A stretch of 64,000 bases of DNA from Gammaproteobacteria bacterium (GCA_028819075.1 JAPPMM010000043.1:124001-188000); one strand, 5' to 3'. Numbered from the stretch's first letter, positions 40,464 to 43,647 are shown. The notes: generated from the letters alone by a model not told the origin. A program made the numbers and translations.

Positions 40464-41303
40464 ATGTCCCGGTGGACGATCCGTCCATTCCGGACCCATC
40501 AGGACTACGAGGCCTGCATCGCGCTGCAGGAAGCCACCTGGGGAACCGGGTTTTCCGAACGGGTCCCCATGGCGCTCATGATCGTCAGCCAGCGCCTGGG
40601 CGGCGTGGCCGCCGGAGCGTTCGAAGAAGACGGATCCCTAGCGGGACTCGTCATCGGGATGACCGGGCTGGAGAACGGCATCCCCGTGCACTGGTCGGAC
40701 ATGCTGGCGGTCCGGCCCGACCAACGGGGAAGCGGACTCGCGATCCGTCTCAAAAGTTACCAGCGGGACGCGGTGATGGCGCTGGGCATCAGGCGCATGT
40801 ACTGGAGCTTCGATCCCCTGGAGTCGCAGAACGCGTACATCAACCTGGCCAGACTGGGAATCGTCGTACGCGAATACGTCGAGAACATGTACGGTCAAAC
40901 CGACTCCCCCCTCCACCGCGGAATGACCACCGACCGTTTCGTCGGCCTCTGGCAACTGGACGCGTCCCGGGTCGAGCGCCGTCTGGCGGGAGATGAGTCG
41001 CCCCCCGCGATCGAGAAGCTCGCGGATGTGCCGCGCGTGCTCGACTGTGTGCCCATATCACCTTCGGGCTGGCCCGAACCGGAAACCCGCGAAGCATCGC
41101 GCGCAGACCAGGTCCTGGCCGCCATCCCCTCCAGCATCCAGGCCCTGAAGTCGGCGTCTCCGCAACTCGCGGCGCGCTGGCGGGAGGCCACGCGTTCGGT
41201 CCTTCAAAGCTATCTTTCGAACGGGTACGAAGTCTGCGAACTCATTCGGGGAGCGCGCGTCTCTCACTATCTCCTGAGAAGAATCGGGGAGATGAATCCA
41301 TGA
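40464..41303 (+). CDS. GNAT-family N-acyltransferase (COG3375-like)
   Basis: A 279-residue acyltransferase. The GNAT core is residues 1-150: TIRPFRTHQDYEACIALQEATWG, LAGLVIGMTGL, and the acyl-CoA loop VRPDQRGSGLAIRLKSYQRD. The C-terminal 120 residues are family-specific. The sequence resembles the COG3375 group. In Geobacillus a GNAT of this kind succinylates D-amino acids for the neighbouring racemase; this substrate is a prediction here. Starts: ATG 40464 (GGCGG eight bases upstream) or ATG 40449, which would overlap the Fe-S gene. It overlaps the next gene by ATGA. Confidence 0.8.
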   Translation: MSRWTIRPFRTHQDYEACIALQEATWGTGFSERVPMALMIVSQRLGGVAAGAFEEDGSLAGLVIGMTGLENGIPVHWSDMLAVRPDQRGSGLAIRLKSYQRDAVMALGIRRMYWSFDPLESQNAYINLARLGIVVREYVENMYGQTDSPLHRGMTTDRFVGLWQLDASRVERRLAGDESPPAIEKLADVPRVLDCVPISPSGWPEPETREASRADQVLAAIPSSIQALKSASPQLAARWREATRSVLQSYLSNGYEVCELIRGARVSHYLLRRIGEMNP

Positions 41304-42535
41304 CCGGGAAGAAGCTCGACTCGCTCCACGTGGCCATCGTCGGCGCCGGTCCCGTGGGGATCGAGGCGGCGCTGGCCGCTGCCGAAGCCGGCGTGTCGTT
41401 CATCCTGTACGAAGCCGGTGCGCATGTCGGCAACAACGTGCTCTCGTGGGGACACGTCGCCCTGTTCACGGGCTGGGACCTGAACGTGTCGCCGCGGATG
41501 CGGCGCTGGCTGCGGCGCGCGGGGCGCGAGATACCTTCCGGAGGCGAGCCCCCGACCGGACGTGACCTGGTCAGGAGAGTGCTTCGGCCGATCGCGGCCC
41601 TGCCCGCCGTCGGCGACCGCCTGCGCCTCGGCACGCGGGTGCTGTCCGTGGCCCGCGAAGGACTCCTGAAGCACGAAGAGATCGCCAGCGCCGAGCGCGC
41701 CAATCTGCCGTTCCGCCTACTGGTGCGCACCTCCGACGGAGAGCGCATCGACCGCGCGGACATGGTGGTCGACTGCACGGGCACCTGGGACGTTCCCAAC
41801 GCGCTTGGCGAAGGCGGCATTCCGGCTCCGGGAGAGGCGGCTGCAGAAGACCGGATCGTCCGGCACATTCCGGACTTCGAAGCCAATCCGGGCGAATGGG
41901 CCGGGAAGCGCATCCTGCTCGTCGGGGGAGGTCATTCGGCACAGACGGTCGCGCGATCGCTCGCGGCCCTCGCCGAGGGCAATCCGGCGACCCGCGTGAC
42001 CTGGGCGCTCAGGCATCCCGAGCTGCGCCTCCAGCCGATCGCCGGCGACCGGCTGCCCGCGCGCAGCCGTCTCACCCGCGCCGCCCGCCAGTTGGCCACA
42101 AGCGATGTGTCCGGCCTCGAAGTCCTTCCGGGTTTCACGGTCAACGGAATGGAGCGCAACGGCGATGGTCTCAACGTGACCCTGAGGCGGCGGGACGGCT
42201 CCACTGCCGTGCGCCGGGTCAACCGGATCGTCTCCATGTGCGGCTACGTCGGCGACCACGGCCTCTACCGGCAGCTTCAGGTGCACGAGTGCTACGCGAC
42301 GGCGGCGCCGATGAAGCTGTCCGCGGCGCTGCTGGCCGGCTCCGCGGGCGACGACTGCATGGACCAGACGAGCTTCGGCGCCAGCACGCTCGGCAACCCG
42401 GAGCCCGGCTTCCTGATTCTGGGATCCAAGTCGTACGGCAGGAACAGCACCTTCCTCATGCGCGTGGGGTGGGAGCAGGTGGACGAGGTCTTCGGGCCGC
42501 TGGGAGCACGGACGACGCCGGCCTCCGCCCGGTGA
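41300..42535 (+). CDS. FAD/NAD(P)-binding flavoprotein oxidoreductase
   Basis: A 411-residue two-dinucleotide-binding-domain flavoprotein. The FAD site is VAIVGAGPVGIEAALAAAEAG near the N-terminus; a second nucleotide site is ILLVGGGHSAQTVARSLAAL (about 211-230), and VVDCTGTWDVPNA is the typical third FAD motif. The layout resembles flavin monooxygenases and thioredoxin-reductase-like enzymes; there is no CxxC redox pair. Substrate unknown. It lies between an acyltransferase and the racemase, overlapping both by four bases, so it very likely acts on the same compound or reoxidises through the Fe-S protein of the operon. Confidence 0.82.
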   Translation: MTGKKLDSLHVAIVGAGPVGIEAALAAAEAGVSFILYEAGAHVGNNVLSWGHVALFTGWDLNVSPRMRRWLRRAGREIPSGGEPPTGRDLVRRVLRPIAALPAVGDRLRLGTRVLSVAREGLLKHEEIASAERANLPFRLLVRTSDGERIDRADMVVDCTGTWDVPNALGEGGIPAPGEAAAEDRIVRHIPDFEANPGEWAGKRILLVGGGHSAQTVARSLAALAEGNPATRVTWALRHPELRLQPIAGDRLPARSRLTRAARQLATSDVSGLEVLPGFTVNGMERNGDGLNVTLRRRDGSTAVRRVNRIVSMCGYVGDHGLYRQLQVHECYATAAPMKLSAALLAGSAGDDCMDQTSFGASTLGNPEPGFLILGSKSYGRNSTFLMRVGWEQVDEVFGPLGARTTPASAR

Positions 42536-43647
42536 GAATCGACGCGATCGAAGTCCGGGAGATCCGGCTCCCTCTGCGAGAGCGGTTCGAGATCTCGAGC
42601 GGATACTCCGAGGAGCGGCGCATCCTGCTGGTCAGGTTGCACGCCAACGGGGTGACCGGGTGGGCCGAGTGCGTGGCGGGCGAGGATCCGGGCTACTCGT
42701 ACGAGACCACGGACACCGCCTGGCACATCCTCGCGGAGTTTCTCATCCCCGCGCTCCTGGGCGCGGAGGTGACGGAGCCTGCGGACGTCGAGCGGCTGCT
42801 CGCGCACGTTCGCGGCCATCCCATGGCCAAGGCGTGTCTCGAGATGGCGTCGTGGGACCTGGAAGGGCGGAAAAGAGGCCTCTCTCTCGCGGAAGCCCTT
42901 GGAGGCTCCGGTGAACCCGTGCCTGTGGGGGTAAGCGTCGGGCTGCAGAAGAGCGACGACCTCCTGGTCGAGAAAGTCGGGGAGTTCCTGGCGGCGGGCT
43001 ATCGCAAGATCAAGCTCAAGATCAAGCCGGGAAGGGACGTTGAGATGGTGCGCGCGGTGCGCGGGGCGTTCCCCGAAGCACCGCTCATGGTGGATGCCAA
43101 CTCCGCGTACACGCTGGCCGACCGGGAACGCCTTGCAGAAATGGACGATCTCGATCTGCTGATGATCGAGCAGCCCCTCGCCCACGACGACCTGCACCGG
43201 CACGCGCGCCTCCAGGAGGCGCTCCAGACCCCGATCTGCCTCGACGAGTCGATCCGCTCGGCCGGAGACGCGGAGTTGGCGCTTGAGCTGGGAAGCTGCC
43301 GCATCATCAACATCAAGCCGGGCCGGGTGGGCGGTTTCGGCTCGTCGCGCCGCATTCACGACCTGTGCCGTGCGCGCGGCGTCCCGGTGTGGTGCGGCGG
43401 GATGCTCGAGTCGGGGGTCGGGAGGGCCTTCAACATCGCGCTCGCCACGCTGCCCGGCTTCACGATCCCCGGCGACATCTCGGCCAGCCGGCGCTACTGG
43501 GAGCGCGACATCGTCGACCCCGAGTTCGAGGTGTTCGACGGGATGATGACGCCCCCCGCCGGACCCGGGATCGGGGTGACTCCCGACCAGCGGCGCATCG
43601 ACCGGCTCACGGTGCGGGTGGAGCGCTGGCCGCGGAGGCGGGCGTAG
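42532..43647 (+). CDS. N-succinylamino-acid racemase / o-succinylbenzoate synthase (enolase superfamily)
   Basis: A 371-residue enolase-superfamily enzyme of the NSAR/OSBS group. All catalytic residues are present: the KLK pair Lys161/Lys163, metal ligands Asp188 (MVDAN), Glu213 (MIEQP) and Asp238 (CLDES), and Lys262 (NIKPGRVGG). Members either make o-succinylbenzoate for menaquinone (MenC) or racemise N-succinyl amino acids, and several do both. No other men gene is nearby and a GNAT partner is present, which favours the racemase role (inference). The start is GTG 42532, overlapping the flavoprotein stop (GTGA). The last 41 bases overlap the convergent ATPase gene. Confidence 0.88.
   Translation: MRIDAIEVREIRLPLRERFEISSGYSEERRILLVRLHANGVTGWAECVAGEDPGYSYETTDTAWHILAEFLIPALLGAEVTEPADVERLLAHVRGHPMAKACLEMASWDLEGRKRGLSLAEALGGSGEPVPVGVSVGLQKSDDLLVEKVGEFLAAGYRKIKLKIKPGRDVEMVRAVRGAFPEAPLMVDANSAYTLADRERLAEMDDLDLLMIEQPLAHDDLHRHARLQEALQTPICLDESIRSAGDAELALELGSCRIINIKPGRVGGFGSSRRIHDLCRARGVPVWCGGMLESGVGRAFNIALATLPGFTIPGDISASRRYWERDIVDPEFEVFDGMMTPPAGPGIGVTPDQRRIDRLTVRVERWPRRRA

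What the first reader, a model, noticed from the sequence alone, without database searches (positions are those of the whole stretch)
40464..43647. Acyltransferase - flavoprotein - NSAR/OSBS operon: candidate new amino-acid route
Seen: a GNAT acyltransferase, a flavoprotein and an enolase-superfamily racemase/OSBS overlap each other by ATGA and GTGA, 5 bases after a GlcF-like Fe-S gene. Known: in Geobacillus a GNAT succinylates D-amino acids, NSAR racemises the product and an M20 peptidase frees the L-amino acid. Here the peptidase is absent and a two-nucleotide-domain flavoprotein plus an Fe-S electron-transfer protein take its place. Inferred: the N-acyl amino acid is oxidised, with electrons going through the Fe-S protein to quinone. 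A D-aminoacylase-like gene at 54072 and amidases elsewhere in the window fit N-acyl amino acid metabolism.
Basis: partly seen in the sequence, partly recalled or inferred. Interest (0 to 1): 0.72.

Follow-up and report, generated by a model that had tools for sequence, protein, structure and literature searches.

The report
menC operon carrying a stray flavoprotein
The four genes are real, but they are an ordinary menaquinone and D-to-L amino-acid gene set whose peptidase lies elsewhere in the genome, and the flavoprotein wedged into it most likely belongs to an unstudied pathway, probably for arsenic-carbon compounds, whose other genes lie at a separate place.

Summary
In detail: GlcF, GNAT, flavoprotein (FLAV) and NSAR/OSBS are complete genes overlapping as described, and GNAT-FLAV-NSAR adjacency is conserved in the family (Gemmatimonadota). 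The 'new route' reading does not hold. In relatives the same operon is M42-GAF-MBL-GlcD-GlcE-GlcF-M20-GNAT-NSAR. FLAV is an optional insert, and the M20 peptidase and GlcDE that seem missing here were merely moved to other contigs of this genome. The NSAR gene is the only menC-like gene; a menF-D-B-A-E cluster without menC is present and futalosine genes are absent, so it must serve as OSBS (perhaps also NSAR). FLAV is a two-dinucleotide-domain, NAD(P)H-type flavoprotein. In 73 family genomes its presence is independent of GNAT (p=0.26) but tracks a metallophosphoesterase (20/20, p=4e-15) paired with a radical-SAM gene; in Acidobacteria and KSB1 FLAV is clustered with these genes, often with an ArsM-like methyltransferase. 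FLAV's sister clade and distant relatives of the phosphoesterase sit in ars operons. Best reading: a menC / D-to-L amino-acid operon in which an ArsV-like flavoprotein of an undescribed organoarsenical module hitch-hikes. The arsenic step is inferred, not shown.

The parts
39140..40459 (+). GlcF-like Fe-S subunit; its GlcD/GlcE partners are at G000:C38 in this genome
   Evidence: Two CCG domains plus Fer4; best equivalog GlcF PRK11274, 296 bits, below its cut-off of 333. GlcD (70% identical) at C38 with GlcE, MBL and GAF beside it.
40464..41303 (+). GNAT N-acyltransferase, proposed amino-acid N-acylating step
   Evidence: No family hit of its own; its operon relative L052 hits Acetyltransf_1. 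Found in 64 of 73 family genomes and 167 of 298 phylum genomes. A distant relative lies near menC/NAAAR in Deinococcus radiodurans.
41300..42535 (+). FLAV: FAD/NAD(P)H two-dinucleotide-domain flavoprotein, optional insert in the operon; predicted part of a radical-SAM / phosphoesterase / FLAV module
   Evidence: Pyr_redox_2/3; AlphaFold2 model pLDDT 88.3, pTM 0.88; nearest folds DiatB, YpdA and N-hydroxylating monooxygenases; tree; co-occurrence and clusters.
42532..43647 (+). NSAR/OSBS-family enzyme, the genome's only MenC-like gene
   Evidence: TIGR01928 357 bits; closest solved relatives are N-acylamino acid racemases; motifs that hold the catalytic lysines and metal ligands are intact at 159-167, 187-194, 212-216, 236-240 and 260-268; sole copy; men cluster without menC.

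Best explanation
Two functions share one locus. (1) The enolase-superfamily gene is the cell's o-succinylbenzoate synthase for menaquinone and probably also an N-succinyl(acyl)amino acid racemase. With GNAT and a now unlinked M20 peptidase it forms the known module: D-amino acid, acylated by GNAT, racemised by NSAR, deacylated by M20 to L-amino acid. GlcF is the Fe-S subunit of a GlcDEF-type 2-hydroxyacid dehydrogenase of the same ancestral operon. (2) FLAV is not a step of that route. It is an NAD(P)H-dependent FAD monooxygenase-like enzyme that acts with a radical-SAM protein and a calcineurin-like phosphoesterase encoded at G000:C24, and was inserted between GNAT and NSAR in an ancestor of part of the family. 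Arsenic context on several sides suggests that it oxidises a trivalent organoarsenical, as ArsV does with methylarsenite. Shown by computation: operon history, sole menC, co-occurrence, cross-phylum clusters, fold class. Inferred: every enzymatic step and the arsenic substrate.
For: Sole MenC-like gene; menF-D-B-A-E cluster lacking menC; no MqnA/D; 57/58 family genomes have a MenC-like gene and 55/58 a menD match, 48 over cut-off. FLAV-less operons run M20-GNAT-NSAR, often with 4-base overlaps. M20 at C31 and GAF-MBL-GlcD-GlcE at C38 in this genome. FLAV vs GNAT in the family p=0.26; FLAV vs phosphoesterase 20/20, p=4e-15; by genus p=1.5e-9. Clusters FLAV-rSAM-ArsM-MPE in KSB1 (3 loci), ArsM-rSAM-MPE-FLAV or parts of it in Acidobacteria (3 loci), MPE-FLAV in G293. 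MPE in 14 of 16 genomes with module-clade FLAV (a few of these rows not placed on the tree) against 1 strong hit in 34 with other FLAVs. FLAV sister clade beside ArsR/ArsK/ArsN1; distant MPE relatives in ars operons of 6 of 7 inspected plasmids other than Roseomonas.
Against: FLAV keeps its place in this operon in all 23 family genomes that have it, over 45-50% protein divergence, which can mean a shared function (but unrelated PilB and TRAP neighbours are kept too). Three family genomes have FLAV without a detected phosphoesterase (G117, G262, G275), and five others in the phylum have the phosphoesterase without FLAV. The ArsM-like gene is absent from this genome and from 294 of 298. The radical-SAM protein is far below the ArsS cut-off. 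No characterised ArsV sequence was available to compare. The co-occurrence tests do not model the species tree.
Confidence: 0.62

Rival explanations
1. One reading: FLAV oxidises or hydroxylates an N-acyl (or free D-) amino acid and works with GNAT and NSAR.
For: Translational overlaps, and GNAT/NSAR adjacency in all 23 family genomes with FLAV; nearest folds include amino-acid N-hydroxylases.
Against: FLAV is absent from most GNAT-NSAR operons and independent of GNAT within the family; outside the family it is never next to GNAT/NSAR in the loci seen, yet it persists with the radical-SAM/MPE pair. M20 and GlcDE are present in the genome.
Confidence: 0.13
2. FLAV does act with the radical-SAM/MPE pair, but the substrate is not arsenical (for example a cofactor or small metabolite).
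For: The ArsM-like gene is missing in nearly all Gemmatimonadota; the radical-SAM protein is nearest the Rv1681 family; the MPE relative on a Picosynechococcus plasmid is not beside ars genes.
Against: Relatives of FLAV and of MPE lie independently in ars operons; ArsM-like gene in the cluster in KSB1, an acidobacterium and G115; radical-SAM/MPE relatives near an arsenosugar-type glycosyltransferase.
Confidence: 0.25
3. The enolase-superfamily protein is only an OSBS and the GNAT/M20 neighbours act on something else; there is no D-to-L pathway.
For: It is the only menC and is needed for menaquinone; some relatives have it without GNAT nearby (L115, L117).
Against: GNAT-NSAR-M20 grouping recurs across the family and GNAT lies near menC/NAAAR in Deinococcus; it aligns best with N-acylamino acid racemases.
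Confidence: 0.3

Closest known systems
GNAT / NSAR / M20 route for D- to L-amino acids (Geobacillus; from general knowledge, no paper held)
   Same: Same three enzyme types, adjacent in the family's ancestral operon
   Different: In this genus the M20 gene has moved to another contig; the NSAR gene doubles as the only menC; operon fused to GlcDEF genes
NSAR/OSBS enolase-superfamily enzymes (Deinococcus, Thermus, Amycolatopsis N-acylamino acid racemases)
   Same: Full-length alignment at E about 1e-105 to 1e-107, motifs intact
   Different: Nothing notable in sequence; activities not measured
Flavoproteins of ars operons; ArsV methylarsenite oxidase is the probable characterised relative (PMC10080717, PMC11719878)
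   Same: Same protein family, about 31-44% identity; sister clade beside ArsR/ArsK/ArsN1
   Different: Separate, well-supported clade; no ars genes seen around it here; identity with ArsV could not be checked
ArsM/ArsS arsenosugar and ArsM/ArsL arsinothricin pathways (PMC8552651)
   Same: Radical-SAM enzyme paired with an ArsM-like methyltransferase in some loci
   Different: Radical-SAM protein far below the ArsS cut-off and much shorter than the 428-residue ArsL; extra phosphoesterase and flavoprotein; ArsM mostly absent in Gemmatimonadota
GlcDEF glycolate / D-2-hydroxyacid dehydrogenase
   Same: GlcD, GlcE and GlcF relatives in one operon in related genomes
   Different: Split between two contigs in the window's genome

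Membership tests
MenC / NSAR-OSBS family | Score over the TIGR01928 cut-off and intact catalytic Lys and metal-ligand motifs | tested here: met
   357 vs 201 bits; motifs located; which residues are catalytic is from general knowledge
MenC / NSAR-OSBS family | Needed for menaquinone: other men genes present, no second menC, no futalosine route | tested here: met
MenC / NSAR-OSBS family | OSBS and NSAR activities | not testable with these tools
   needs purified enzyme
GNAT/NSAR/M20 D-to-L amino-acid module | GNAT next to NSAR, conserved in relatives | tested here: met
   adjacent in the window apart from the FLAV insert
GNAT/NSAR/M20 D-to-L amino-acid module | M20 peptidase in the same operon | tested here: not met
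   Not in the window's operon; present in most relatives' operons and at C31 in this genome
NAD(P)H-dependent monooxygenase-like flavoproteins | Two dinucleotide-binding motifs and matching fold | tested here: met
   Motifs near 10-40 and 204-214; fold
NAD(P)H-dependent monooxygenase-like flavoproteins | Class B FMO fingerprint FxGxxxHxxx(Y/F/W) before the second Rossmann motif (from memory) | tested here: not met
   Read off alignment A1: only a RHIPDF-like stretch, its His not conserved
ArsV-type organoarsenical oxidase | Location among ars genes | tested here: not met
   Not in the window; met for the sister clade and for ArsM-linked close relatives
ArsV-type organoarsenical oxidase | Sequence clade of a characterised ArsV and NADPH-dependent methylarsenite oxidation | not testable with these tools
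   No characterised ArsV sequence held
ArsS arsenosugar radical-SAM | Score over the TIGR04167 cut-off (partner gene at C24) | tested here: not met
   56.5 vs 300 bits
GlcDEF 2-hydroxyacid dehydrogenase | GlcD and GlcE partners | tested here: met
   Adjacent in relatives; at C38 in this genome

The most novel reading that the evidence does not exclude
A radical-SAM protein, an ars-type phosphoesterase and an ArsV-like flavoprotein, sometimes with an ArsM-like methyltransferase, form an undescribed organoarsenical module spread over Acidobacteriota, KSB1 and Gemmatimonadota; the window's flavoprotein is one component of it, parked in the menC operon.
Probability: 0.45. Interest if true: 0.7.

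Novelty: new variant of a known kind. Interest (0 to 1): 0.45.

Why it matters
It shows how operon adjacency can mislead: a gene overlapping its neighbours by four bases on both sides follows a different, unlinked gene set across the phylum. It names a testable three- to four-gene module that may make or detoxify arsenic-carbon compounds in bacteria where such chemistry has not, to my knowledge, been described, and it identifies the only menC of these genomes inside an amino-acid operon, supporting shared OSBS/NSAR function.

Tried and rejected
Sequence search for FLAV among solved structures gave only weak FMO/YpdA-like hits. No solved relative for GNAT. The idea that GlcF lost its partners was rejected: GlcD/E are at C38. 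Requiring an ArsM-like gene for the module was rejected: only 4 of 298 genomes have it. Filing the radical-SAM protein as ArsS was rejected. Papers on NSAR genome context and on phosphoesterases in ars operons were not found in the held library, nor was the ArsV paper. Operon-wide synteny was set aside as proof of function because unrelated neighbours (PilB, TRAP transporter) are equally conserved.

Full report
Observation. The four genes are intact and lie on the + strand at 39140-40459 (GlcF-like), 40464-41303 (GNAT), 41300-42535 (FLAV) and 42532-43647 (NSAR/OSBS), with 4-base overlaps ATGA and GTGA and four bases between the first two. The window is G000:C43:124001-188000 of a 4.4 Mb, 98% complete genome. 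Relatives recovered by name are Gemmatimonadetes bacteria (L139, L140).

Operon history. FLAV relatives occur in 43 of 298 genomes of the phylum. In all 23 genomes of the window's own family that have it, it lies next to GNAT and/or NSAR; in the seven loci inspected outside the family it does not. Gene calls in relatives show a longer operon: M42 peptidase, GAF, MBL hydrolase, GlcD, GlcE, GlcF, M20 peptidase, GNAT, NSAR (M42 named from sequence resemblance). Where FLAV is absent, GNAT usually abuts NSAR directly, often with a 4-base overlap. FLAV is thus an optional insert. Some FLAV-bearing operons also gain a flavin-reductase-like gene and a weak DUF1611-like gene, seen in none of the FLAV-less operons.

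The missing parts are not missing. The window's genome carries an M20 gene 54% identical to the operonic one at C31, as do all genus members searched, and GAF-MBL-GlcD-GlcE at C38. The ancestral operon has been split into three places.

The NSAR/OSBS gene. It is the only MenC-like gene in the genome. A cluster identified here by sequence as menF-menD-menB-menA-menE, without menC, lies at C28 (the menD match is model-based, 445 bits, the others are named from sequence resemblance and recur together in relatives). MqnA/MqnD, the markers of the futalosine route, are absent. In the family 57 of 58 genomes have a MenC-like gene. So this gene very probably provides OSBS. Racemase activity is likely from its closest relatives, but not shown.

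What FLAV is. A 26-sequence alignment gave an AlphaFold2 model with pLDDT 88.3 and pTM 0.88. The nearest solved folds are the flavin monooxygenase DiatB, the reductase YpdA and N-hydroxylating monooxygenases, all at 11-19% identity. This places it among NAD(P)H-using flavoproteins with two dinucleotide-binding domains; it gives no support for passing electrons to GlcF.

What FLAV goes with. Nearest relatives in Acidobacteria (57-58% identity) and KSB1 (40-43%) lie in compact clusters with a radical-SAM gene, a calcineurin-like phosphoesterase (MPE) or both and, in four of the six, an ArsM-like methyltransferase. MPE directly precedes FLAV in G293 of the window's own phylum. Searching the same 298 genomes: FLAV 43, MPE 40, both 35; all 40 MPE genomes have the radical-SAM gene. 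By genus the overlap is 11 of 15 (p=1.5e-9). Within the family every MPE genome has FLAV (20 of 20, p=4e-15), whereas FLAV and GNAT are independent (p=0.26). In genus g7 the four FLAV genomes (G081, G164, G229, G265) have the pair, and the four seen without FLAV (G135, G153, G256, G277) have neither. In G117, which lacks the pair, FLAV has one in-frame stop while GNAT and NSAR are intact; G117 is a draft assembly, so one base could be an error. G262 probably lacks MPE only because its contig ends after the radical-SAM gene. In the window's genome the pair is at C24. These tests do not model the species tree; the cross-phylum clusters are the independent evidence.

Tree. FLAV proteins split into a clade of 34 rows (support 100) holding the operon copies and the radical-SAM/MPE-linked copies, and the remaining rows, mostly beside ArsR, ArsK, ArsN1 or MarR genes. 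MPE is present in 14 of 16 genomes whose FLAV belongs to the first group (a few of these, such as L142, L148 and L149, were not themselves on the tree) but only in one of 34 others at high identity.

Why arsenic is suspected. (a) FLAV's sister clade sits in ars operons; reviews list ArsV as a methylarsenite oxidase (PMC10080717). That these flavoproteins are ArsV is my inference. (b) Distant MPE relatives (about 30% identity) on plasmids lie in ars operons of Hymenobacter, Adhaeribacter, Paraclostridium, two Rubrobacter and Mucilaginibacter; Picosynechococcus is the exception. (c) The ArsM-like gene scores 343 bits on the arsinothricin ArsM model, below its cut-off of 500. (d) Radical-SAM and MPE relatives in Roseomonas lie near an arsenosugar-type glycosyltransferase. 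Against: the ArsM-like gene is absent from this genome, and the radical-SAM protein is not ArsS by model.

Verdict. The operon itself is a known kind of gene set. The new element is the predicted radical-SAM/MPE/FLAV module, whose chemistry is unproven.

Noticed in passing
G000:C24:110466-112151 (L230:8964-10742): Adjacent radical-SAM and metallophosphoesterase genes, the proposed partners of the window's flavoprotein; the radical-SAM protein has extra conserved C-terminal cysteines, as for a second cluster.
   Followed up: yes
L044, L052, L054-L057, L094: Flavin-reductase-like and weak DUF1611-like genes flank M20 in several FLAV-bearing operons and in none of the FLAV-less ones seen; role unknown.
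   Followed up: partly
window 46991-49972: TAXI-TRAP transporter (fused permease and solute-binding subunit) downstream of the operon, conserved in position in many family genomes, with or without FLAV.
   Followed up: partly
window 54072-55745: Exported-looking amidohydrolase of the PRK09061 type; the D-aminoacylase label is plausible but the match is below that family's cut-off.
   Followed up: partly
L264, L268-L270, L272, L273: A phosphoesterase family recurs inside plasmid ars operons next to ArsM, ACR3 or ArsC in Bacteroidota, Bacillota and Actinomycetota; its role there is not stated in the annotation.
   Followed up: partly
window 38926-39075: Short open frame upstream of GlcF whose product looks like the end of a PDZ domain; possibly a gene remnant, judged by eye only.
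   Followed up: no
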